Shown piece after piece: positions 568-44,228 of a DNA stretch of 64,000 bases (positions are counted from its first letter, which is position 1; the number at the start of each line of letters is the position of its first letter). The notes below the pieces were generated by a model, which worked only from the letters and a program-made list of their open reading frames with translations, made no database searches and was not told the DNA's origin. The translations under genes were made by a program, and so were the position numbers. This DNA is from Symbiotaphrina buchneri (Eukaryota; Ascomycota; Symbiotaphrinales; Symbiotaphrinaceae), in contig BCIG01000012.1 in NCBI GenBank assembly GCA_001599915.1, forward strand, positions 620,001 to 684,000. Reading direction: 5' to 3'.

Positions 568-3500
568 ATGGCCGGCCAATATCCGCCCGCGCTGAATCTG
601 AATACCCATCAGTCTCCTTTGTAAGGGGTGCCTGTCCATAGTGTGATAGTGCCATGGCTGATCCTCCTACAGAAATCGACCAAACCCGAATAATGCCTTC
701 AGCCCCGCCTCCGGAACGCCAACCTCCTACAAGACGAACGTTAATAGACAGAAGACGAAGAAATGGGTTGAGGCAAAGTCGGTTTCATATGACGGAGACG
801 ACTGGGCAGATGAAGACGATGAATATGATGAGGGATACGAAGAGCCGCCAGCTATGCCAGAGCCACCGAGAGGCTTGAGACAGAAGGGGCAAACCCTCAA
901 TACTGCTGCGAACCGGGCGCCGGTGGAAGCGCGGAAGGGATATGGCGACCTGGAACAGGGAGGTGGTGCCCAACAATACGGACAGAGGGCGGCAACGAAT
1001 CCTATGCCCGGCCCAGGTCTTGGAAGCAAAGGGCGGACAAACTCATTCGACGAAGGAGATGAGAGGCGGGCATTTTCCGCAGGTGCACCTCAACAGACAC
1101 AAGTTCCACTGGACTCTTTCCCGAACCCGCCGGGGCGACCGCAACCGCCGTCGAATAACTTCCAGAACTCCCCTGCTAGCGAAAGCCCAAAGATGTCCGC
1201 AACCCTCTTTCCTTCGAGAGAAAAGCCGTTGCCGGTACCTGCTTCCCGCAACTCTCCGCAGCCTCAGGCTGGCCCATATGGTTTCGGACCGCAGCCACAA
1301 ACTCAACCAGCCGATTCAAGAAGCGTCTCATATTCACAACCTCGCGGCCGGACAAGCACGGATCGAACACGCTCGATCGATAGCAATTCCCCAATAGACT
1401 TTCGGAGACGGAATGACTATTCTCCATCCGCTGTCCCGCAAGGACTTCATAGTAGGGCAGCCAGCGCCGCCAGCGGCCAGTCAGTTGCTACTGATTCCGG
1501 TGCATTCCCACCAAGAAGAAGTAGCCTGAACCAGAAAGAATCGCCTCTTGGACCACGCAACGGTTCCCCTGCCGAGACCTCATCAACCTATACCAACACT
1601 GTGAAACGGCCGGAGAATGCAAGCAATAGTCCAGTCGCAAAACCCCTGCCCTTTATTAGACCGGCTGATATATATAAGCGAATGGAGGAGGAGAGGGAGA
1701 GGGAACGAAAGTCTATGGAAAGCGGGAGACCCAGCATGGATTCAATATTGGGTAGATCACAGGGCAGTGGTGATGGCCTGGGGCCTGGGGTACATACAGA
1801 TCGACGGAGCACGGAGAGTCCATCAAGGCACTTGCGAAACAGACCTTCGTGGGACAATGGAGACGATACCGACTCTTCCGGTAGCCGGAGGCTAAAACCA
1901 ATGCTCGATCCTGTGATCGAACGAAAGAGCGAGTATGGATTCGAGGGTCACAACCTTGCCGATGTGATTCCCAATAGTGGACCATCTATGCAAGTGGAGT
2001 CCGCTCCCCGCGATGCTCCGGTTGAAGTCCAGAAAGCGGCTGTCCCGCCTTCGGATGCGCAGACGGCCGCTCCGCAGGCCGAACAGGAACAAGATGCCCC
2101 CATGCTGCCATTGGTGACACGTTTCTCTGGGTTTGGTGACGGTTTCTGGGCACCATCAAATACTGATGCAGAGAATACATCCTCCCAGAAGGCGCCACTC
2201 GAGCAAGGGCCGCCTGTGTTACCAGCTGCGTCTAATACAGAAGAGGCGCTTCAGAACATCAGAGCGAATCAGCCGGCGACACAGGCTTCTGAAGAACATA
2301 CGATCCAAGAGAAGCCCTCCCTTGGCTTCAGGTCCATGGTTCATGAAGCCTTTGACCAGCCTGATGATTCTAGCTCAATTCCACCCACACCGTCCTCAAG
2401 AGCTACCAGCCAACGTTCGCAAGAAGGGCTGACTGTTTCCAGACAGGACAGTACAAGCACATCTGGTCTGAGTCCAATCATGAGTGGTATGCCGGGGAGC
2501 ACTCTTCACCCTTCAAGATCTCGAGAAGAATTCGAAGCGCGGAAAGGCTCCACTCCTGCAATAGCAGAAGTCATGGAAGAAGGAGAGACCACAGGTTCCA
2601 GGCCGGTCTCTTCTTCCACGGACGGCCAAATGACGATACCGAGGAAGCCTTCGCCAGGGCATAGCCGTAACGTCTCCACCGAATCAGTGCCGTTGTCACG
2701 GAGATCTGGCCATCGACGTGATGTGAGCGGATCCAGTCTAGGGGATAGTCCTGCTCGTTCTCCGGCTGTAGCTACGAGCGATGCACCTGCCGGAGAAGAA
2801 GGGGTAATCAGTGACGGTACCCCTCTGCATTGGCAACCAACTGAGAGAGGCTTCGAGGAAACGGAACCTATCGTGGAAGTAACCGAAGCTATGGGGGATA
2901 ATGCACATTACACAGGTCGTGAAGCTGATATGGCTTCCGCTGTTCAACAAAACCCTAATCAGCAGGCTTCCCCCTCTATGGCCGCTGCGAGTACCGCTGC
3001 TCAAGATTCCTTCCTCGAATCTAGGCATAATAGTGCTGAAACCTCAGGGGCCCCTTCACCGCTGCCGAAAGTGGCATCGCCTACGAAAGGCAAGGTCCGT
3101 GATCTCACCGATCACTATGAGACTGTAAGTCGGGCTGGCTCCATGCGCTCCTCATCCAGCAAGAGCCTGGCAGCGTCTGGAAAGAGCCAGGAAGACCTTC
3201 TTTCACCGAGACCTGCTCCTGATCGCCTGGACAGCTTCCGACCTGCCCTGCCGGGTGGTTGGAACTCCTATTCGACGAACCAGGAAGGGTCGGGACCAGA
3301 ACCCGCCCCTTCTACTACAGATTTTGAGGAGTCGGCTCCAGACCGTAAGATGGCGCCGACACCGCTGCAATGGGATGACAACCGTGCAAAAGAGTTCGCC
3401 AAACAGATAACGCTTGCCTCTACTGGTGATACGGCTGGGCTGCCAGACACTCCACAAGAAGAGGCACCGCCTGAGGATAATTATGAACCCACGCCTGTAA

Positions 3501-5578
3501 CGTCCAAACGACAATTGGAGGGAGTGCACGAAGAGGATTTGAACAAAGGACCGCTAACTCAAGCCACAGAGACTGTGACGGAGACTGTTACTACCGCTGC
3601 GAATGCTGTTGCTGACGCTCTGGGCCTCAAGAACGAAGATACTGCTGACTCCGATGAATCGGACTCAGGACTGGACGAGCCTGTGGAAACGCAGCGAGAC
3701 CTGGAAGACAAAGAAGACGAAGAAGCTCAGCTGGCATATGCTATCGAGTTGTCAAACGCAGAGGAAGTGCCAGACAAAAGCCGCGACGCCAACCTCATGC
3801 CTCCACCCGCTAAGCCGACTCCCATCGAGCAGATTCTAGCCGCCGAGCGAAGTCTACCGCCAACCCCACCACCGAAGGATACCCCGCTTGCCTCAGATTC
3901 GCAGAACGATCAGTCAGAAAACTTTACTCCCCCTGTTCCCTTGAAGCATAAGAAAATGTCTGAGCAGATGGCTCCCGATCCCGAATTACCCCCACTGCGG
4001 CCATCGGTCCTACCGACTATCAGCACAGACTACTCGCCACAGGACCAAGAAAGCGATAGACTGCGCAAGGAAATCTACAAAAGTCTCAGCCCCACAACTG
4101 CGCATGCGGCAGAGATACCAGAAAGCCGCTTGTCTCCCACGACCCCAACCAGCGCTGCCACCGGTAGAGAGAGCACCCTCCTCCCTAGCGAATACGAGAG
4201 CTACTGGGCAAGTACTGGTCAAGGAGACAACGTCGTTTCAAGCGGGCAGTCGCTCCAAGGACCTCCGCAAGCTCAAAGAGAGGAGCCGAAAAGCGTACCG
4301 GAGACGGTGGTCCAGCCTAGCAGTCCAGTTGTGGACACGACGAACAGGAGGTTTGAGCTACAAGATCCACCGGTTTCGAATCCTACCACGCAACCAACGA
4401 ACGAAGGGTTACAGGTCCGACCTTTGCTGAAGCAACGCTTCTCGTGGGAAGAACCGGTTGCGCCGATTGAGCCGATTGAGCCGCCATCTACACACATGCA
4501 ACCAGCGGCTGGGCCATCGGCTCAGACCTTGAGCGAACCTCCAGCACATACTCGCACCCCAATCCCCGGTTCGTCAGATCCACGGCAAGCGCTACCAGCC
4601 TTGAAAACGGACAACAATAATTCTAGGGCCCTTTTCGAGACCTCACCGATCACACCAACGGATCCCACCTCGGCGATAGAAGTTGCGGATGGGCTGGAGG
4701 TAGCAGATGGCACGGAGTGGCGGCGCAATTTTGGTCTTGAACCTGAACCAATGTCCGCAACAAGCGGTCCTATTCAGAGTCCTACCCTGCAGGGACTACC
4801 GACCTTCTCCCAACCCCCGTCTGCTACTTCCCTCCAGGATAACGGAGAGTCTCCCAACGTCATCTCTCAACCACAACCATCACTACCGCCGAACGAAAAG
4901 CACGTCCATTCTCCTCTACAATCACATCCAGTGGGATCATCGAGCGCACAGAGCATAGCGTCACCTCGGCAGCCTTCGTCCAGTACTATGCCCCAGACGG
5001 TCGCATTGGTACCTCCCCAATCTCCGCCTCATCCCGCACAACAACCGGCTCAGCACGGTCGTATTCCGGCCTTCCGTGAGATCATGGCGCTCAAGACACC
5101 TCAAGAGCGGATTAAAGCTTTCAACGCTGCTCGAGAACAGTTCTATAACCTCGACATGGGTCTCCAGTCATGGCTGACCTTCATGGCGACAACGAACCCA
5201 GATTACCTGGCGTCTACATCTTCACGGGGTCCGGCTTCGGGTACGGCAACCACACCTGTGCGTCAACAAGCGGCACAGCAGCCATACTACCAGCAATACC
5301 TCGCTGCTTCCTCAGCTAGCCCTACTTCTCCCTCCCGTCCTCCGCATCACGCTGCTACACAGTCGGTTGGAGGTGGTTCCATGGCCACGTCCGGGTTTGG
5401 CAGCCCATTGAGCAGCTCGGGCACCGTTAGTGGGAGACACATGCAAGCGAAAGGAAAGGAACTGTTACATTCGGCGGGCATATTTGGAAAGAAGGGTGGG
5501 GATGCAGCTAAAGGCTTGTTTGCCAAGGGGCGCAGCAAGTTCAGGAGTTCAAGTGGGATGGGTGGCGGAGCGGAATAG
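568..5578 (+). CDS. Large low-complexity conserved fungal protein, 1,652 aa
   Basis: The model is join(568..620, 673..5578). The 52-nt intron has donor GTAAGG, branch CTGAT and acceptor CTACAG. Exon 1 starts at ATG 568 and joins in frame to a stretch containing KKWVEAKSVSYDGDDW followed by an acidic DDEYDEGYEEPP run, a signature I recall from otherwise disordered Pezizomycotina proteins. The middle (about residues 100-1430) is Pro/Ser/Thr/Glu-rich with no visible fold. Two more ordered blocks lie near the C-terminus: a helical segment beginning FREIMALKTPQERIKAFN (about residue 1,470) and a basic Gly/Lys/Phe-rich tail around KGKELLHSAGIFGKKGG. This layout suggests a scaffold or membrane-adaptor protein, but no function is shown. 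A start at 654 would put the conserved block out of frame, which supports the spliced start. Confidence 0.85.
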
Positions 5579-6726: not shown

Positions 6727-7528
6727 ATGGCGGCAACAGGAGTCTCACCGAACATGCCATTCCGCTTCTTGAGTCTACCGCGGGAGATCAGAGATATGGT
6801 CTACCGACTGGCTCTGGTCGCAGACAGCCCGCTTAATGTCTGGGACGGCCGACACCGCGCCGGTGAGCACTTTTTCTCAGAGCTGGACGGCGTCACAAGG
6901 CTTAAAGGATGTTGTTCCAGCACTCTTGCGTTCGTGTCGTCAAATATCCTCAGAGACACTGCCGATTTTTTACTCCGAGAACGAATTTGAAATAGTGAAT
7001 TATGACTCGTGGGACGTATTGGCTCTCTGGATAGCAGCCATTGGGTCTCAAAACCTCGCCTACGTGCGCGGGCTAAATATTGACGTTCCGCGGTTTCGTG
7101 ATGTCTTAACGACCGCGCATGGGATTCGGATCCCGGAGCTGGAGGATGCAGTGCGGCGTCGCGCACCGGATTGGTTCTTGAGAGGTCTCGATTTCGACAG
7201 GGAGCCTTTGGAGGTCCCTCGAGCGGTATGCGGAGTTCTTCGAAGATCCGCCAGTATACGCGCTCTAAAATATCTGGTGGATGTAGGGTGTGATGATCTT
7301 CCTTATGAGATAGGCAATGATTGTCTCGGCCAACTGAGAGAAGATCTGAATGTACCAGCCGAGGCTATTACAATATGGATCAAGAACTCCAAGCCATATG
7401 ATCATCGGAGACTGCAGGGATTCCTAGATACGATTTCCAAGGCCAGGGAACAGGGATACATGATTCAAGTGGATGGAAAGCCTTACCAGGAGGGTAACAT
7501 CTACTTTGAAGATGGTCAAGATGATTGA
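6727..7528 (+). CDS. LPxEIR/F-box-like family protein, 247 aa
   Basis: The model is join(6727..6862, 6921..7528); the 58-nt intron has donor GTGAGC and acceptor GTTCCAG. The N-terminus carries FRFLSLPREIRDMVYRLAL, and splicing brings it next to ALLRSCRQISSETLPIFYSE. This arrangement, LPxEIRxxIY then (L)RxCRQI..E then (F)YSxNxF, marks a large fungal family related to F-box/2EXR proteins. A shorter acceptor at 6899 is possible but gives a 37-nt intron. The family is expanded in filamentous ascomycetes and usually has no assigned substrate. Four relatives occur in this window, at 8391, 42035, 43581 and 44920. Confidence 0.75.
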
Positions 7529-8390: not shown

Positions 8391-9167
8391 ATGTCGACGT
8401 CCGATGCAACACAGGCGCCTTTCTTTGATTTCACTGGTTTGCCAGCGGAAATCAGGCATAATATCTACAAAGAAGTACTAGTTGATGACGATCCAGTCAT
8501 AGTATGGCGACAATTCCAGGATCGGTTCCAGAACGGTCCTATCCGAAGAAACAGGACTGCAATCATGAGGTTGTCACACCAGGTCTGTAGAGAGGCGACT
8601 CAGGTATTCTACACCTTGAATACATTCCGATTCTCAGGACGTATTGCGGTTGACGCCCTGAGGACATGGATACACATTATCGGAGAGCGGAATCTCGCAT
8701 GCGTGAGAAAGCTGATGATACTCAATCCTGAACATAGGAGACACGTTGTGAGGTACACGACTTGTCATGTGGATGTAGTGGGAGGGCAATTTGCTGCAAT
8801 GTTGATGCATTGTAATCCTAACCCGTCCATCCATTTTCGGACCGAGCAGGAAGCACGTCCGGAGTGGAACCTGTTGGTCCAAAACTTGAAAGCATTCGCG
8901 AATATCGGCGAGATATACCTGGAGGTGAACATGGGTCACCGTCAGACCACTTCACCAGACTTCGTGAAACTGTTTGCTCCCAGGCACGGCACTGAATCGG
9001 ACCTCGAGCCCGAGAAAGTTACAGTGATGATTCGTTCTTCTCATTCGGACGGCACAGATAGCTTGGATTCAGTAATGCACCCTTTCATGGCTTTGGGTTA
9101 CAAGGTAGTAGCCGTTCCTTCTTTCGGGCGATGTGATGGAAGACAGAGACGCGCTTTAGGATTCTAG
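8391..9167 (+). CDS. LPxEIR/F-box-like family protein, 258 aa
   Basis: A single uninterrupted exon. The N-terminal motif is FDFTGLPAEIRHNIYKEVLV, followed at about residue 60 by LSHQVCREATQVFYTLNTFRF, the second family motif. The layout then matches the 6727 and 42-45 kb copies: a WI..IG..NLACVRKLMI segment and a weakly conserved C-terminal half. The ATG at 8391 sits just after a good acceptor-like CTTTCCAG, consistent with a leader intron. Function is unknown; the N-terminal motif is F-box-like, but binding to Skp1 is only an inference from the family. Confidence 0.75.
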   Translation: MSTSDATQAPFFDFTGLPAEIRHNIYKEVLVDDDPVIVWRQFQDRFQNGPIRRNRTAIMRLSHQVCREATQVFYTLNTFRFSGRIAVDALRTWIHIIGERNLACVRKLMILNPEHRRHVVRYTTCHVDVVGGQFAAMLMHCNPNPSIHFRTEQEARPEWNLLVQNLKAFANIGEIYLEVNMGHRQTTSPDFVKLFAPRHGTESDLEPEKVTVMIRSSHSDGTDSLDSVMHPFMALGYKVVAVPSFGRCDGRQRRALGF

Positions 9168-12519: not shown

Positions 12520-13221
12520 TTAATCTATATCCATCATCTCAACGTCTTCTTCCTGCACAGTCGGCACAGTCGTTGCGTCAACCATATCAACATCAGGGGG
12601 CGGGGGCGGGGGCAGGGACCAGCTTTGCGTCAAGAGCAGCATCGGCCTCGGAATCTGAGATGTTGCACTGGGAAACAACGCGATTGTTGTATCCCAGGAT
12701 GCAGGACGAATCGTGCGTCCCGATGAGGAGGATGGACGCGGTGGGCGCCGTGGGCCCGATCCACCAGAGCGAGGTCCACCCGAGCGTGGAACAATCAGCT
12801 GTTGCTCGGAAGTTCGCCTTCCAGGGTCACTAGAATAACCGAGTTGTTTATCATCTTCGAGTTCGGTAAAGCGAGATGCGTCTCGTGCTCTAGCTGCGGA
12901 GGCGGCAGCGGCAGCGGCTTCGGCGGCTGCGGCGGCTTCGCCGTGATCAAAACGCGGTGAATAACGTGATTTGGCGACCCGACAACATCGGCAGTGGCAG
13001 TGGCAACGAACTGTGCTCAGAAGGCAGATGCGTGCTGGCTCGTAGAAGCGTCCTCCGGGACTATACATTGTGGCGGAGATTGGCTGGTCTCTGTGAGAGG
13101 ATCTGAAGCTGGGAAGGGTAGGCTGGGAACGAAGTGTTGTCTTGCCCCTGGATGATCGTCGTTTCTTCGTTTTTGTGCGAACTCTTGGATTGAACAGAAA
13201 GTAGGGACGGGAGCCTTTCAT
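12520..13221 (-). CDS. Hypothetical basic protein with acidic tail, up to 233 aa
   Basis: One open frame. The N-terminus is basic (KTKKRRSSRGK), then there is a Cys/His patch (RCHCHCRCCR), an Ala-rich stretch (about residues 95-112), a Pro/Ser/Gly-rich middle and an acidic tail ending DVEMMDID. No family is recognised. Compositional bias, not homology, keeps the frame open, so it may be partly or wholly spurious. An internal Met (SATMYSPGGRFYEP) is a plausible alternative start. Confidence 0.35.
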   Translation of the reverse strand: MKGSRPYFLFNPRVRTKTKKRRSSRGKTTLRSQPTLPSFRSSHRDQPISATMYSPGGRFYEPARICLLSTVRCHCHCRCCRVAKSRYSPRFDHGEAAAAAEAAAAAASAARARDASRFTELEDDKQLGYSSDPGRRTSEQQLIVPRSGGPRSGGSGPRRPPRPSSSSGRTIRPASWDTTIALFPSATSQIPRPMLLLTQSWSLPPPPPPDVDMVDATTVPTVQEEDVEMMDID

Positions 13222-15340: not shown

Positions 15341-16264
15341 TCATGAAATTAAATACCACATTAAAACCACCAGGGAGACAGCTGCGAGAGGGAGGATACT
15401 GGGGGCCCTTTCATTCGACTCAACGTAGCTGCCATCGAGGATCTTGTTGAAGGTTCTGATCGCACGTGGGTTCGGTACTTCTTCTGTTCCCATTGGCGTC
15501 TCCTGCATGATTTCAATCGGGGGCAGCGTAGGATCTGAGTACCACTCGGGAGCCTTGTAGATGCTAGGATTGATGCTGAACGGCTTTGTTGGAGCCGACC
15601 AAGAGGATGACCAAGAGGACGTGGAGCGTGCAGGCCGGCTGTTTTTCAACAACTTTCTGTGTTCAGCAAGTAGAGATGGCGCCTTTGTTTGCCGACGTGA
15701 GCGGCTAGGATTGGGATCATCCAGCTTGGGCTTCGCCTGACCGTATGGCGTTTTCCAATGCGAATAAGGACCTATTTCCGGAAGCTTGGAGCAAAAGTCA
15801 GCGATGAGCGCGTCCTCCTCCGCCTGGGGTAAGGGCTCCTTGCCTTCCCTATCTTCTTCGTCTAACAGACCACCGGCCATCATGGCCAGGTTGTCAATGA
15901 CCACTCCCTTCTTGTCAGTGACTATTGCAGCCCAGATTGGATCGTCTTCCAGACTGTCTAGATACTGCGCTCTGGCACGTGGCAAGGAGAAGATAGACGC
16001 GTTGTTTCTTCGTCTGTGTGCTTCTGGACATTTGCCTGAAGAACTGAAAGCAGCTTCAAAGTCATTGCACAGCTGATCCTGTTCCGCTACTGGCGGCATA
16101 CTGTTTCGTCTGGCTTTTGCACAGCCACCGCATTTCACTCCTTGGTAGATAGTCTGCATAACTTGGAGCCATATCGCATCTGTGCAAGGCGGGTTATGGC
16201 AAGGGGAAAGGTAGATAGTGTCGACGTGCCCGCACGTGTACGACCGTTGAGTTGCTTTGCACAT
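15341..16264 (-). CDS. Cys-His mini-domain protein A with C-terminal membrane tail, 307 aa
   Basis: A single exon starting MCKATQRSYTCGHVDTIYL. Cys/His residues are spaced C2-x8-C11-x-H13, then CHNPPC, then KCGGC by about residue 49, as in a small zinc-binding module (zinc binding is inferred, not shown). Beyond residue 60 the protein is hydrophilic and variable, and it ends with a hydrophobic segment (APSILPLAAVSLVVLMWYLIS) that could be a tail anchor. A TATAAG lies about 106 bp upstream of the ATG. The first 50 residues are related to the proteins at 17518, 18494, 19571 and 20135, forming a local family. No known function. Confidence 0.7.
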   Translation of the reverse strand: MCKATQRSYTCGHVDTIYLSPCHNPPCTDAIWLQVMQTIYQGVKCGGCAKARRNSMPPVAEQDQLCNDFEAAFSSSGKCPEAHRRRNNASIFSLPRARAQYLDSLEDDPIWAAIVTDKKGVVIDNLAMMAGGLLDEEDREGKEPLPQAEEDALIADFCSKLPEIGPYSHWKTPYGQAKPKLDDPNPSRSRRQTKAPSLLAEHRKLLKNSRPARSTSSWSSSWSAPTKPFSINPSIYKAPEWYSDPTLPPIEIMQETPMGTEEVPNPRAIRTFNKILDGSYVESNERAPSILPLAAVSLVVLMWYLIS

Positions 16265-16369
16265 TTTGTGATTTTTAGCTAACCAGTAGCTTATAGTGAT
16301 TGAAGGATGGCTGGAACGGTAACGAAGTAGTTGGCTCGTGATCGTGGCTGGGTTTATGGGCTGGCCTGC

Positions 16370-16375
16370 TTATAA
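16370..16375 (-). promoter_or_regulatory. TATA-like box of gene A
   Basis: TATAAG on the minus strand about 106 bp upstream of ATG 16264. Confidence 0.4.
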
Positions 16376-16548
16376 TGCTATTGTGAACAACATGACCAGA
16401 TGTTGTTCAGCATGTATAAAGAAAGAAGAATAGCATTGTATACTTTAGACAATGAAAGTCAAATCTTTGTCCACCCGAATTTCGCCGAAGATGCTGGAGC
16501 AGGCCCCAGTAGAGATGCGCAGCGCGGCCTTTGTTGATGGAAACTCCA

Positions 16549-16561
16549 GACAAAGACCTCA
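16549..16561. promoter_or_regulatory. Shared upstream element GACAAAGACCTCA, copy 1
   Basis: A 13-bp word identical to 19278-19290 and close to the complement of 18198-18210. It lies about 285 bp upstream of gene A. The core ACAAAG is the kind of site bound by HMG-box proteins in general; that assignment is an inference. Confidence 0.45.
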
Positions 16562-16675
16562 GCACAAAGAAACAAGATAAGGTGCATACGAATCATGCTT
16601 CAACCCGCTCCTCCTGTAACTTCATGCGAAATGCCAGAGGAAATTGAGACATCGCCTAGGCATCGCGCATATACT

Positions 16676-17208
16676 CTACACCCATGTAACCGCCTTTGCT
16701 GGTCGTTTCTTAATTTGCCGCATCGGAATCCATTCGCTCTGGAAATCATCGCTGTCGCGAGCCGTCTGTCTCCTCCGCCCTAGCCATTTCTGGTGGTTTC
16801 CGACGGACATATCTTGCTGCAGAAGATCGTAAGACAGCTCTTTGTCAGAGACCTCACAACGGTCGCGCTTCTCCTCCGGCCATCCAAATCGGTCGTTCTT
16901 GCCCTGAAAGTCTAAGGTGACATGATGCGGCAGATCCTTTGGTAGTTCAATCGAGAGAGATTGGTTCTTCCAGGTCAAACTGAGTTGTGAGGAATTTGGA
17001 CTACCGAAGCAATTAGCCGTGTGTCTTACATTGGAGACAGGAATCCATGAGACTTGTTTGATGAATGTAAAATAGATATCCCGGACTGGAACTCAGCAGC
17101 TGAAGCTAGCAAACCTTGAGAACCAACCGATATGTTGACCCGTATCGGTGGCGAAGGCTCTGAAGTGAGGTGCGAGGTGGTGTTGCTGCCTTCTGGGTGT
17201 TCTTGCAT
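16676..17208 (-). CDS. Hypothetical spliced protein, 160 aa
   Basis: The model is complement(join(16676..16979, 17030..17208)). The 50-nt intron has donor GTAAGA, branch GGCTAATTG and acceptor ACTCAG, and the join is in frame. Exon 1 begins MQEHPEGSNTTSHLTSEPS and continues with PPIRVNISVGSQGLLAS. Exon 2 contains LTWKNQSLSIELPKDLPHHV and a charged segment rich in Asp, Arg, Lys and Glu. It lacks the Met-Cys start of its neighbours and no family is recognised. The only support is two consecutive protein-like frames joined by perfect splice signals. Confidence 0.5.
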
Positions 17209-17517
17209 TTCGTCAAAGCAGTGTCCCTTACAATCCAGAACAGTGTCTCAAATAAAACCTATTGCAATCTTCGGTATAGGCGGGAGAACAAAAAGCTGTA
17301 AGCAGAATTGGTATGGTGAATATCAGGCAACATCATAGCTCCAAAAGTGTTGGCGTGACAGAAGGCGTAGCAGTCGGCGAAACGATACTTCCCCCTTTTT
17401 GCGAGGTTATAGTTGCCTAGATCTTGTAGTTGGGCACAACAAACCGATGACTGTTTGCTAACCGTACACACGACAGGCAGATACGACAGTTCCGTAGAAT
17501 TCTCCACAACCTCGCAT

Positions 17518-18027
17518 TCAAAGCTCTTCCCGCCGAATTCCTAGATTCCATGGCTTCCCCGGGTATCTCGGATGACCCAGCTCTCCCAGTATCTCCACGA
17601 TCTCCTCGTCATCAAACCCTTCCGCCTCCAAATGCAAAGTAAGACTCCCAGCATAGCGCAAATACCTCTGGACTGCCTGATCCTCCCACTGTCGTCTAGC
17701 TTTACGTTTCCGCTCCCGCTCCCGTTCCTCCACATACTGCCGCCGGAATTGAGCATCGTCCCACATCCGGTACTCGGCGCCGGTGTCGCAGAGACGTTGT
17801 TGTGCGCCGTAGATGCGAGCCGTAGGTACACACCAAGGCTTAGCGGTAGCCCAGAGGTTGCGGACCGTGGTTTTGTATTGTGAACACCCGCGCGCGCACA
17901 TTTTGCATGGGCCCTCGTCGTAGACATTCGAGATGATCTCGGGGAGGAGGCAATGCTCAGAGCATATATACCCATAGACATACTCCCAGTGATGGCAGGC
18001 GTAGTGGCAGAGAGTTGTAAAGCACAT
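17518..18027 (-). CDS. Cys-His mini-domain protein B, 169 aa
   Basis: The start is placed at the Met of MCFTTLCHYACHHWEYVYG rather than an upstream in-frame Met (18102), because all relatives begin Met-Cys. Cys/His residues continue with ICSEHC and CKMCARGC by about residue 50. The C-terminal half is a highly charged, probably helical segment (EERERERKRKARRQWEDQ) followed by an acidic stretch with DDEEIVEILGELG. It is related to A, C, D and E through the N-terminal 50 residues only. The shared upstream element occurs about 175 bp upstream, in inverted orientation. Function unknown. Confidence 0.7.
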   Translation of the reverse strand: MCFTTLCHYACHHWEYVYGYICSEHCLLPEIISNVYDEGPCKMCARGCSQYKTTVRNLWATAKPWCVPTARIYGAQQRLCDTGAEYRMWDDAQFRRQYVEERERERKRKARRQWEDQAVQRYLRYAGSLTLHLEAEGFDDEEIVEILGELGHPRYPGKPWNLGIRREEL

Positions 18028-18493
18028 TGTGACTGTATTTGTGCTGGTGAAAGCCCTCAAGTACGGAGGATCGGAGAACATGAGATGCCGCAGAAGGAAC
18101 AAAAGGTCTAGACTAGCCCAGACCTGGATCCGGTTGGCTTAAGTATCTTCATCTGCTGTAGCGATGTCATCCACATTTGGGAACAGCTGTTGGGAAGGTC
18201 TCTTTGTCTGGAATGAAACGTATTGTCTTACGCGGACCTCTTTGTTAGGCCTGAGCTTCTCGGTCGTTGTCTACCACCTTTTCTTCCTTAAGCCTACGTC
18301 TATTGAACCATTAACTTGTCCATCTTCTGTTCCTGCTATTTCGTTCCTTACTTCTGCCCATCACTATCAGAATCATTCATAGTTATCCTGCCATTGCGGA
18401 TACTCTTTTGTTTTAAGAATTTCAACTTTTTGTATTGAAATTAGAGACTTGCCGCATTAAGAGAAAAGCCACCATACCGTAATGAAGATCAGT
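18028..18493. other. Intergenic region of the Cys-rich cluster
   Basis: It holds the promoter of gene B. CTTTGTC at 18202, within a copy of the shared element (CCAGACAAAGA.ACCT on the minus strand), and CTTTGTT at 18240 are visible. Confidence 0.45.
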
Positions 18494-19038
18494 CTAAATC
18501 CACCCGTACATGATGAAATCCTCGAGTTCCTTCTTGCCAGGGCTGCGAGGCACATCAGCCGTCGCATTCAAAGCCCTATATGCCTCCATGCGGTTCCAGA
18601 TGATTTCATTCCTGTCTTCTTTAGCGTTGATTTCGGGAGAAAACATACCTTTCTGAACCAGCTCATCGATCTGCGCTTGTACAGGCTGCCAATTCTCTTG
18701 GATATGCTTGTGGCTGGTGCTATTCAGCAAGCCCAATAGGTCGGTGGCTTCCTTCTTAGGATCCATTCGTAAGCCTTTGTGAGAAGGAATTTCTGGTAAA
18801 GGCTTGTTGAATGGTGGAGGCTTGCTGCATGGTAAAGGCTTGCTGAAATTTGGTACAGCCTTGTTGAGGAGTCCCGCTACAGCCCTGCGTCCAGGCAAAG
18901 AACAGCCACGGCAACTCTCGTCGACCCATATACCTTTCCCAAATCTGCAGCGTGAACACAAGTCGGTTGCTTGCAACTGGAGAGAATCTTTCTGTCATGG
19001 TGACCACACGTGTAAGTGTAGAGAAGAAATCGACACAT
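18494..19038 (-). pseudogene. Cys-His mini-domain protein C, frame broken near 18930
   Basis: Translation from ATG 19038 starts MCRFLLYTYTCGHHDRKIL, continues SSCKQPTC, and then leaves the family pattern. The expected continuation (IWVDESCRGC, then a Pro-rich segment with repeated KPLP/KPPP and a helical tail ending MYGWI at 18494) lies in the next frame. No GT..AG intron of usable length joins the two frames without losing the CRGC motif, so one base appears to be missing around 18925-18945. A weak donor (GTCGAC) spliced to the acceptor at about 18845 is the only alternative I found. A TATA-like sequence lies about 135 bp upstream. It could be a recent pseudogene or a sequencing error. Confidence 0.55.
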
Positions 19039-19570
19039 CGTGCTGTCAGCGTAGAAATAGATCAGTATCAAATCGAAAGATTCTTACCGTTTCTATGCCT
19101 CAATCAGAATATCTCCCCGGTGTCGCTAGAATCTGCGCTTGAAGATCCGTCACCATCAACCTTGAGGTGCATTATATACTATGACTGTGTCAAATTGTCC
19201 AGCAGCGCGAGAGAATCCAGCTGAACAAGGCATTGTCTTCTAATAAAAGAAAACTTCTTTGAAACAAAGAATTCGTGGACAAAGACCTCACATATAATGC
19301 ATTGTCAGGCCTGTATACACAACAGAATAGTTGCTCCTTTGTTGCAGGACTTGGCCTTACAACAATCAGCGATCTCTACAGAAACCACTCACAGCATAGG
19401 GACAATCCCCGGACGTTCGCAGGCCACTTTGACACAATTCTCCGAATTTGATAAAGTATTGCAGTGTCATTGCAACGTCCTGGTGCTCCATCAATTATTG
19501 CCAATTCCCCAGACCATTATCCACAACTATCGACAGTACGTCCCAGCTGATTGCTAATCAAATCTTCAAG
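19039..19570. other. Divergent intergenic region between genes C and D
   Basis: About 530 bp with CATTGTC (19231, 19300), ACAAAG (19264), CTTTGTT (19337) and a TATA-like ATTATATA (19171). This is the densest run of these words in the cluster. Confidence 0.5.
19278..19290. promoter_or_regulatory. Shared upstream element GACAAAGACCTCA, copy 2
   Basis: Identical to 16549-16561. It lies about 240 bp upstream of gene C and about 280 bp upstream of the divergent gene D. Confidence 0.45.
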
Positions 19571-19786
19571 ATGTGCGAAGGCCTTCTTCTCGGTTGTAAA
19601 CAAAGCCAGAGTCTTGAATTTGGATTCCTTGAAATTTGCGCCGCAGATACATCATGTGGCAGCGCAGATGTCCGTCGAAAGATGATCGATGATCCAACAT
19701 GTGCGGAATGTCAGAAAGAAAAGACGCAGGCAGCGGTCAAGAAATTGAAACATTACAATATTGACTATTGGTTCGGTCATATTTAG
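19571..19786 (+). CDS. Cys-His mini-domain protein D, 71 aa
   Basis: The start is taken at the Met of MCEGLLLGCKQSQSLEFGF; the frame is open upstream to 19448, but family members begin Met-Cys. The remaining cysteines follow as EICAADTSC and TCAEC, giving the C..C / C-x2-C ending seen in the relatives. A short Lys-rich helix and YWFGHI close the protein. This is essentially the bare N-terminal module without the long variable tails of A, B, C and E. It is divergent from gene C. No signal peptide. Confidence 0.6.
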   Translation: MCEGLLLGCKQSQSLEFGFLEICAADTSCGSADVRRKMIDDPTCAECQKEKTQAAVKKLKHYNIDYWFGHI

Positions 19787-20134
19787 CGTGTTTCGAGCAG
19801 TTGAGATGAGTATGGTGATTTAGGTGGTCTTGGAAGATATGATAGAGGATTCTCTGCACTAAACCGGAGTTAAATGTTCTATTACTTTCAGCTTTCATGA
19901 TGCTCTTTCCCTGTTCCCCAAATTGTGAGGTTTAGATGGTAGAAGGACTTCAAACATCCTAGCCATGTCACGCAATGACGTTCCCTGTTGAACATGGCTG
20001 TGCAGATGCTGTCCTGACTTGCACGGACAGTATTACCTCAAATTATAAATATCCAACAGCACTCCCATCATTTTTCCCCTGCTGTGCCTCGACTCTCGAA
20101 CCAAGACTGCAGCTAAATCCAATTTAGCAGTGCC
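19787..20134. other. Promoter region of gene E
   Basis: A TATAAATA box at 20044-20051, 84 bp upstream of the ATG at 20135. Nothing else is called. Confidence 0.5.
20044..20051 (+). promoter_or_regulatory. TATA box of gene E (TATAAATA)
   Basis: A perfect TATAAATA 84 bp upstream of the ATG at 20135. Confidence 0.55.
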
Positions 20135-20925
20135 ATGTGCCGCGGTACGTTGAATCTGTTTGCTTGCTACCACTGGGCATTAACCTTTGAGGAAGGCGGT
20201 TGCGACTCCATCATTACAGGAGAAATTTGCTTACGCTTCTTTGCAACAGAATCCACCTTTTACCCACAGCTCTGCGCTTGGTGCGAGGCTGCGCTCAATA
20301 CCTGGAGAGGCGACCAGATTCCCGACTCACCAACCTCACCCGGATCCTCGGGGGTGCCGTACCCGCGTGGTAGGAGGGGAGCTATATCCGGTCCATCTGG
20401 GATACGACCTGCCACAGAGTAGAGGCTGGGCCCCTGAAGCTAATGGCTAACCCAAACCATACAGGCCAGTCCGATGGGCTACAAAGTCATGCTCAGCCTC
20501 AGGATAATCCCGCTCGTGAAATTGAGCAGCTCAGGCAGCGCATGGAGGTGTTATTACGGACTCTCGACTCGCCAATCTCGCCCCGTTCATCGGAGGTTCC
20601 GTACCCGCGTGGTAGGAGGGGGGCTGTTTCTGGTCCTTCTGGGGTAGGACCCCCACCTAGAGTAGGGACTCCTGCTCAGCCTCAGAATGAGGCCGCTCGT
20701 AAGATTGAGCAGCTCAGGCAGCGTATGGAGATGTTGCTAGCGAGCGATGCAAACCGTCAGAGTCATCCTAATGGCCAACAGCTTGCTGAAGGTCATAATG
20801 TGTCTCAGGACGAGTTTGCTCGTGAGCTTGAAGAGGCCAGACGGCTGCTGGAAACGTGGGAAAGGAGCACTCAGCACGTGGCTGGATCTGGAACCGGGGA
20901 TGGAGATAGGATGGACATTGACTGA
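20135..20925 (+). CDS. Cys-His mini-domain protein E with internal duplication, about 240 aa
   Basis: Proposed join(20135..20418, 20487..20925). The 68-nt intron contains branch GCTAAC and ends ACAAAG, and it removes the stop at 20420. The N-terminus reads MCRGTLNLFACYHWALTFEE, then GGCDSIITGEIC and LCAWC, the family pattern. After residue 60 a block is repeated twice: SP-x-SP, VPYPRGRRGA, SGPSG, then AQPQ..AR-x-IEQLRQRME-x-LL. The C-terminal part is a predicted coiled coil (ELEEARRLLETWE) and the tail is acidic (DGDRMDID). Without the intron there would be two proteins, of 95 aa and up to 160 aa; alignment of the two repeat copies favours the spliced form. Confidence 0.55.
20324..20739 (+). 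repeat. Two-copy in-gene direct repeat
   Basis: Copy 1 is about 20324-20564 and copy 2 about 20565-20739. Both contain the words GTACCCGCGTGGTAGGAGGGG and GAGCAGCTCAGGCAGCG. Copy 1 is longer because it holds the proposed intron. Confidence 0.7.
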
Positions 20926-43580: not shown

Positions 43581-44228
43581 CTATGGATTTACTTGCTTTG
43601 TCTCCCATTGCTCTGGTTTCATCAATGGATCAGGGCAGAACGTCACCCAGGTAGTTCCTTGATCCGGAAAATATTCACGAATTGCGGTCAACTTCGCCTG
43701 TCGGTCTGGTCGGTTCCAGTCGTCGATCAGTAGGAAGAAATCCAGACGCCGAGTCAGAGATTTCACGATTGGGCCGAATTGTGGATCATGGGGGATATAC
43801 CCGGTGGGAGTCGGCCATATCCTACGGGCTGAATCACCGGTCAAGTGGGCGAACGACTTGTTGCCAGAAGGGAACTTGATCTCAACCCGTCGAATCAGTA
43901 CTAGGTTGCGTGGTCCTAAGCTCTCTATCCATAACTTCAACTCCCGCCATGCTGCATCGACTAGGAAGGCAAATGTATTCCTGGAATAGTACGGCGGAGC
44001 AGCCTCCCCGCGTATTTGTCTGCACACTTGTAACAGTGGCTTTGCACGAATTTTTTCCCGTGGTCCGTACCAGGGGTTGTCCTGTAGGATCTCTGTCCAG
44101 TTCGGCAGGTTGGTACTCTTTGTTACGTTGATGGCTCTAGGGGCCACTAAGCTAGCTTCGTATATCTTGTGACGGAGTTCTGGTGACAGGCTGAGCAAAC
44201 GGGAATTCTGTCTTCCTAGCTCCCTCAT
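43581..44228 (-). CDS. LPxEIR/F-box-like family protein, tandem copy 2, 215 aa
   Basis: A single intact exon starting MRELGRQNSRLLSLSPELRH. The canonical Pro of LPPEL is displaced (LSPELRHKIYEASLV). The second motif is LLQVCRQIRGEAAPPYYSRN then TFAFL. The C-terminus ends with GTTWVTFCPDPLMKPEQWET, closely matching copy 3 and less so copy 1, so copies 2 and 3 are sisters. Function unknown. Confidence 0.8.
   Translation of the reverse strand: MRELGRQNSRLLSLSPELRHKIYEASLVAPRAINVTKSTNLPNWTEILQDNPWYGPREKIRAKPLLQVCRQIRGEAAPPYYSRNTFAFLVDAAWRELKLWIESLGPRNLVLIRRVEIKFPSGNKSFAHLTGDSARRIWPTPTGYIPHDPQFGPIVKSLTRRLDFFLLIDDWNRPDRQAKLTAIREYFPDQGTTWVTFCPDPLMKPEQWETKQVNP

What the first reader, a model, noticed from the sequence alone, without database searches (positions are those of the whole stretch)
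15341..20925. Cluster of five diverged Met-Cys-starting Cys-His mini-domain proteins
Genes at 15341(-), 17518(-), 18494(-), 19571(+) and 20135(+) all start M-C and then show C-x-H or a near equivalent, a middle pair of cysteines and a C-x2-C within the first 50-60 residues. Their C-terminal parts are unrelated: a membrane tail in A, a charged helix in B, Pro repeats in C, none in D, and a duplicated repeat with coiled coil in E. One conserved small module with freely swapped tails, in a tight two-orientation cluster, looks like a diversifying gene family. Zinc binding is my inference.
Basis: partly seen in the sequence, partly recalled or inferred. Interest (0 to 1): 0.8.

Follow-up and report, generated by a model that had tools for sequence, protein, structure and literature searches.

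The report
Fungal Met-Cys zinc-like mini-module family
Four, and possibly five, neighbouring genes of one fungus (one of them apparently broken) start with the same short Met-Cys cysteine/histidine pattern and then carry unrelated tails, three more copies lie elsewhere in its genome, and the shared piece is predicted, not shown, to be a small zinc-binding head of a fast-changing gene family.

Summary
The core observation holds. A, B, C and E begin exactly Met-Cys-x8-Cys-x-His, the only 4 such ATG starts in the window. A, B and E also keep a middle cysteine pair and C-x2-C in one frame; in 264 kb read in six frames that spacing occurs only in these three. D lacks C-x-H and is borderline. Corrections: C is not one reading frame; its start and its C-x2-C plus tail lie in different frames with no convincing intron. 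E's tail is likely joined by an intron. Three further copies lie outside the window: a stopped one 5.7 kb before its start and a tandem pair of nearly module-only genes on another contig. The tails show no similarity. No Pfam family fits. Two searches of 5.8 billion proteins found nothing, but by one control gene no close relative of this fungus is there. Most likely: an intracellular zinc-binding adaptor module in a birth-and-death gene family. Zinc binding, expression and function are untested; both structure predictions failed.

The parts
15341..16264 (-). Gene A, 307 aa, single open frame; module = residues 1-50 (C2, C11, H13, C22, C27, C45, C48)
   Evidence: left-out profile test rank 1 of 3580, E 4.2e-7
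15344..15400 (-). C-terminal hydrophobic stretch of A (last 19 residues), possible membrane tail anchor
   Evidence: Kyte-Doolittle mean 2.1 over residues 289-307; topology inferred
17518..18027 (-). Gene B, 169 aa from the Met-Cys start; module = residues 1-48, then charged tail
   Evidence: left-out test rank 1 of 3681, E 0.012; rank 2, E 1.3 without Met-Cys
18877..19038 (-). C, first frame: Met-Cys, C-x-H and middle Cys pair, stops after 53 codons
   Evidence: similar to A, 45% over 31 residues, E 0.0019 in the whole genome
18494..18930 (-). C, other frame: C-x2-C and Pro-rich tail; joined to the first part only by a frame change or an unconvincing intron
19571..19786 (+). D, 71 aa, nearly module-only, lacks C-x-H; uncertain member
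20135..20422 (+). E, first ORF: module (C2, C11, H13, C23, C32, C47, C50) plus first tail repeat
20370..20464 (+). Likely intron of E (donor uncertain: 20367, 20370 or 20391; branch-like CTAAC at 20447; acceptor ACAG)
20443..20925 (+). E, second ORF: second tail repeat and coiled-coil-like stretches; its first residues probably fall inside the intron

Best explanation
Genes A, B, C and E (possibly also D) likely belong to one small, fast-diverging gene family whose shared N-terminal head of about 50 residues is predicted to fold around zinc and would act inside the cell as an interaction module, with the unrelated tails likely setting location or partners. Shown: the Met-Cys start, the C-x-H, the middle cysteine pair and (in one frame in A, B, D, E, G1, G2) the C-x2-C; no other place with the full spacing in 264 kb; tails without detectable similarity; three further copies (F 5.7 kb before the window; G1 and G2 in tandem on another contig); broken copies (C, F). 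Inferred: metal binding by some of C2, C11, H13, C22, C27, C45 and C48 (numbering of A); an intracellular place, since no N-terminus looks like a strong signal peptide by a crude scale; tail anchoring of A; coiled-coil pairing of E. The family would grow by local duplication, lose copies by frame breaks and stops, and exchange or lose tails while the head stays under constraint.
For: C11/H13 in 6 of 150 Met-Cys ATG peptides against 2 of 6104 others. In 7 left-out profile tests against about 3400-3700 other ATG peptides the left-out member ranked 1 in 6 and 2 (behind D) in 1. A profile of the C12 copies alone (A, B, C, E, F) scored G2 at 5.9e-5 and G1 at 3.9e-4 among 4097 peptides; G2 had been found with a family consensus I composed and G1 was then seen beside it. 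A and G2, on different contigs, share five ligand positions exactly and the last pair shifted by one. Y or F two residues before the C of C-x-H in 6 of 8 copies (A, B, C, E, F, G2; read). A purine at -3 of 8 of 8 starts (read). No detectable similarity among tails.
Against: Zinc binding has no structural support: AlphaFold2 mean pLDDT 45.6 and 44.3. Without Met-Cys, E, F and G1 are not recovered by the others (ranks 132, 167, 125), so their kinship rests largely on Met-Cys plus C-x-H. In the first left-out round B scored only E 1.0 and was beaten by an unrelated peptide (L013_1011). D is erratic. Codon usage does not separate these genes from chance ORFs: A 0.054, B -0.044, D -0.014, E ORF1 -0.066, E ORF2 0.030 bits per codon; chance ORFs median -0.056, 95th percentile 0.110; long training ORFs median 0.086. 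No expression data.
Confidence: 0.5

Rival explanations
1. The invariant Met-Cys is a regulatory N-terminus: Met is removed and the exposed cysteine is oxidised or modified, so that it controls stability (Cys N-degron) rather than holding zinc.
For: All 8 copies start Met-Cys, although the queries that found the outside copies also began with Met-Cys. Met-Cys N-degrons exist in plants (start of the abstract of PMC11773813 in the search listing).
Against: The other Cys/His positions are kept too. The thiol dioxygenase family PF07847 gave no match in this genome, but nothing rang in the 14 controls either, so this is uninformative.
Confidence: 0.12
2. Secreted cysteine-rich effector-like proteins.
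For: Small, cysteine-rich, lineage-restricted, fast-diverging genes are typical of that class (general knowledge).
Against: No strongly hydrophobic N-terminal core in A, B, C, E, G1, G2 (8-residue Kyte-Doolittle maxima 0.56-1.26; D 1.79, F 2.27; a crude measure, no signal-peptide program was available). Conserved His and Cys2 do not suggest disulphides (inference).
Confidence: 0.08
3. Mostly decayed or non-coding ORFs: an old family of which most copies are no longer functional.
For: C is frame-broken and F has an in-frame stop; codon usage does not tell these genes from chance ORFs.
Against: A (307 codons), B (169), D, G1 and G2 are open throughout; spacing is kept across contigs. Indices for repeat-induced point mutation are ordinary in the cluster.
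Confidence: 0.2
4. Convergent chance: unrelated ORFs with Cys/His residues in similar places.
For: Identities to A are only 20-39% in the module alignment; D-E, C-E, C-D and D-F are at chance level in shuffles; E, F and G1 are lost when Met-Cys is removed.
Against: Fisher 4.6e-9; left-out tests; a second tandem pair found with the family consensus and scored by a profile that had not seen it.
Confidence: 0.05

Closest known systems
LITAF-like zinc ribbon (Pfam PF10601)
   Same: C-x2-C knuckle; weak match to G1 only (E 0.024, 15.2 bits, cut-off 23.8)
   Different: Below cut-off, listed for 1 of 8 copies; the inserted hydrophobic helix of LITAF (recalled) is absent, and a C-x-H near a Met-Cys start is not part of it (recalled)
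Zinc ribbon Zn_ribbon_8 (Pfam PF09723)
   Same: Weak match to D only (E 0.035, 14.6 bits, cut-off 34.4)
   Different: Far below cut-off; not listed for the other copies
RING finger
   Same: A C-x-H followed later by C-x2-C
   Different: RING spacing (recalled pattern) not found in any of the 9 sequences tested
Lineage-specific fungal gene clusters such as the 670 Neurospora LSGs (PMC10684091; outline with abstract and sections 13-14 read)
   Same: Clustered, lineage-restricted, almost without known domains (11 LSGs with a Pfam annotation), homologous neighbours such as NCU00529-00531
   Different: Those are defined by restriction, not by a shared Met-Cys head; no HET domain was seen in the 18 other ORFs scanned here
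IGY-motif small secreted protein family, 107 members in Marssonina brunnea (PMC4367982; listing only)
   Same: Conserved N-terminal motif in a large fungal family
   Different: Described as secreted; nothing on a Cys/His module in what I saw
Fungal 2EXR / DUF7730 families (Pfam PF20150, PF24864)
   Same: Fungal multigene families; four related ORFs lie in this same window
   Different: No Pfam link to the module

Membership tests
Met-Cys C-x-H module family defined here | ATG directly followed by Cys | tested here: met
   8 of 8 copies A-F, G1, G2; copies were sought with Met-Cys queries or patterns, so this is partly by ascertainment
Met-Cys C-x-H module family defined here | C-x-H 8 or 9 residues after Cys2 | tested here: met
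   7 of 8: A, B, C, E, F, G2 at 8, G1 at 9; D fails
Met-Cys C-x-H module family defined here | middle Cys pair and C-x2-C in the same frame | tested here: inconclusive
   6 of 8 (A, B, D, E, G1, G2); C has C-x2-C in another frame, F stops before it
RING finger | C-x2-C-x(9-39)-C-x(1-3)-H-x(2-3)-C-x2-C-x(4-48)-C-x2-C | tested here: not met
   0 of 9 sequences; pattern recalled
Zn2Cys6, MYND, LIM, ZZ, CCHC, C2H2, CCCH, B-box, AN1 | recalled ligand spacings | tested here: not met
   0 of 9 sequences for each
A20-type finger | C-x(2-4)-C-x11-C-x2-C | tested here: not met
   Only the second frame of C fits by spacing, 1 of 9 sequences; no Pfam match to that ORF
Any Pfam-A family | score over the curated cut-off | tested here: not met
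   No match of a module or of A-F, G1, G2 over cut-off
Zinc-binding domain | binds zinc | not testable with these tools
   Structure predictions too poor
Cys N-degron substrate | Met-Cys start plus thiol dioxygenase in the genome | tested here: inconclusive
   Start met; enzyme family search rang nowhere, controls included
Secreted effector | signal peptide | tested here: inconclusive
   No strong hydrophobic core by a crude scale, highest in F and D; no dedicated predictor

The most novel reading that the evidence does not exclude
A new kind of fungal zinc module in which the protein's own N-terminal cysteine, exposed after removal of Met1, is a metal ligand, so that the fold can exist only at the very start of a protein; this would make it a redox- or metal-sensing head that is shuffled onto arbitrary tails and would explain why Met-Cys is kept while nearly everything else changes.
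Probability: 0.12. Interest if true: 0.75.

Novelty: new variant of a known kind. Interest (0 to 1): 0.42.

Why it matters
Fungal genomes hold many domain-free, fast-changing gene families whose kinship ordinary searches miss. Here a tiny head, recognisable by about seven Cys/His positions and a place at the very N-terminus, ties together genes with unrelated tails on two contigs. If the head binds metal and needs the free N-terminus, it gives a handle on a class of orphan genes and a testable reason for a strictly kept Met-Cys.

Tried and rejected
Homology in 5.8 billion proteins: A alone gave 1450 candidates, none at E 10 or better; a six-row profile gave 269 candidates, none. These tools need shared 5-residue words, so distant relatives can be missed. 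As a control the neighbouring UPF0261 gene found 7998 of 7999 scored candidates at E 1e-30 or better, the best of them Sarea resinae at 56% identity: the database holds fungi but, by this one gene, no close relative of this one. The absence of hits is therefore weak evidence.

The weak whole-genome hit on contig C20 was dropped: its frames read like a PHD/helicase-type protein (my reading). PDB profile hits: a cytochrome c555 trimer at whole-sequence E 1.9e-4, made of three heme C-x2-C-H stretches that alone score E 41-67, and ubiquitin hydrolase 30 at E 0.4; both rejected.

Intron for C: many GT-AG choices of 40-160 nt restore an open frame. Of those printed, one (41 nt, GTTCAC to CGAG) keeps C-x-H, the Cys pair and C-x2-C, but its sites are poor and it removes nearly the whole spacer; the others lose one of these features. 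No CT[AG]A[CT] branch-like site exists in the first 400 nt. A frame change (decay or assembly error) is more likely. RIP as cause of decay: indices are ordinary. Flanking DNA duplication in the cluster: only E's own repeat and one weak inverted repeat at the settings used. The match at L019:6114 is taken as chance (36 codons; G-S before its C-x-H).

From memory, Met-Cys-starting Cys/His hypothetical proteins are common in filamentous ascomycetes; this is recall and was not tested. Paper searches for the motif in several spellings found 0 papers; in wider searches the titles and abstract starts listed showed nothing on it. These say nothing about journals not held.
Full report
What was checked. 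The window is part of a 23.4 Mb genome in 82 contigs (contig C12, 620001-684000). Neighbouring genes look like those of a filamentous ascomycete: a Tm-1-like UPF0261 protein whose best match is Sarea resinae at 56%, fungal transcription factors, 2EXR and DUF7730 proteins.

The five genes. A is one open frame of 307 codons (15341-16264, minus). B is open for 169 codons from the Met-Cys ATG at 18027, with an upstream in-frame ATG at 18081. C starts Met-Cys at 19038, but that frame stops after 53 codons; the C-x2-C and the Pro-rich tail lie in a second, overlapping frame. D is 71 codons. E's first ORF holds the module and the first of two tail repeats; the second ORF is in another frame. The only CT[AG]A[CT] branch-like sites in the first 420 nt of E, at 20440 and 20447, lie just before an ACAG at 20461-20464, so an intron is likely, although its donor is uncertain. 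C has no such site in its first 400 nt.

The shared pattern against chance. In 264 kb (window plus 200 kb of the same contig) there are 6 ATG starts with exactly M-C-x8-C-x-H: A, B, C, E, one at L022:4257 (F) and one at L019:6114, taken for chance. Among ATG peptides with at least 13 open codons, C11 and H13 occur together in 6 of 150 that begin Met-Cys and in 2 of 6104 that do not (Fisher 4.6e-9); four of the six prompted the test. The full spacing without a Met requirement is matched three times in six frames, by A, B and E.

Copies beyond the finding. F (L022:4257, contig C12:614257, 5,744 bases before the window start) reads M-C-x8-C-G-H and meets an in-frame stop after 34 codons. A family consensus that I composed found contig C9:718888 at E 0.053; the fetched stretch holds two open genes in tandem, 69 and 57 codons, both Met-Cys, C-G-H, Cys pair, C-x2-C. 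A profile of A, B, C, E and F, which had not seen them, scored them 3.9e-4 and 5.9e-5. A second consensus query found A, B, C and E only, and queries with B, D, F, G1 and G2 found only themselves. The genome search scores only candidates from a loose first look, so the number of copies is a lower bound. In 15.9 kb beside the C9 pair no further copy was seen.

Tails. BLASTP among the tails of A, B, C and E finds nothing below E 0.1 except E's internal repeat. A ends in 19 hydrophobic residues (mean 2.1). G1, G2 and D are almost module only.

What it is not. No Pfam-A family over cut-off; ligand spacings of RING, Zn2Cys6, MYND, LIM, ZZ, CCHC, C2H2, CCCH, B-box and AN1 (recalled patterns) match none of nine sequences, the A20 spacing only the second frame of C. 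AlphaFold2 on the module alignment and on A's first 188 residues gave mean pLDDT 45.6 and 44.3, so no fold search was run.

How it most likely works. The kept residues (in A: C2, C11, H13, C22, C27, C45, C48) are enough for one tetrahedral site with extra ligands or for two linked sites; C-x-H and C-x2-C are usual zinc knuckles (general knowledge). I therefore take the head as a small zinc-binding interaction module inside the cell, with tails that would place it at a membrane (A) or pair it by coiled coils (E). This step is inference. What is unusual is that the first Cys is always residue 2: 8 of 8 copies, and a profile without Met-Cys finds no internal occurrence of the head in six frames of 283 kb. 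Two cautions: the outside copies were sought with Met-Cys queries or patterns, and that stripped profile cannot recover E, F or G1 when they are left out, so it would miss distant internal copies. If the position is truly fixed, a free N-terminus may matter, either as a metal ligand after Met removal or as a degradation signal. The enzyme search bearing on the second idea rang nowhere, controls included.

Evolution. Tandem and clustered copies (C12 cluster, C9 pair), low identities, and broken copies (C, F) fit birth and death, without a sign of repeat-induced mutation. Selection could not be tested for lack of orthologues. Codon usage neither supports nor excludes coding.

Verdict. A real, small, unnamed gene family with a compact N-terminal signature; moderately interesting, with a testable oddity in the Met-Cys start.

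Noticed in passing
window 6836-7528, 8391-9167, 42035-42688, 43581-44228: Four ORFs with 2EXR and/or DUF7730 similarity, two below and two above the Pfam cut-offs: another diverging fungal multigene family in the same window.
   Followed up: partly
window 33054-34892 (-): Alpha-galactosidase (Melibiase_2) with a C-terminal ricin-type lectin domain.
   Followed up: no
window 20317-20858: E's tail holds two copies of a 93-nt repeat (82% identical) and three of a 66-nt repeat (86% and 61% to the first); the first unit carries about 59 extra bases between them, the likely intron region.
   Followed up: partly
window 12520-13221 (-): ORF ending ...MMDID, like E's ...RMDID end; no other similarity found.
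   Followed up: partly
L039:4989-6467: Zn2Cys6-like regulator ORF about 2.7 kb before the C9 pair (my reading).
   Followed up: no
L022:4362-4517: After F's stop the same frame continues with further cysteines including a C-x-C, as if an old copy had been stopped.
   Followed up: partly
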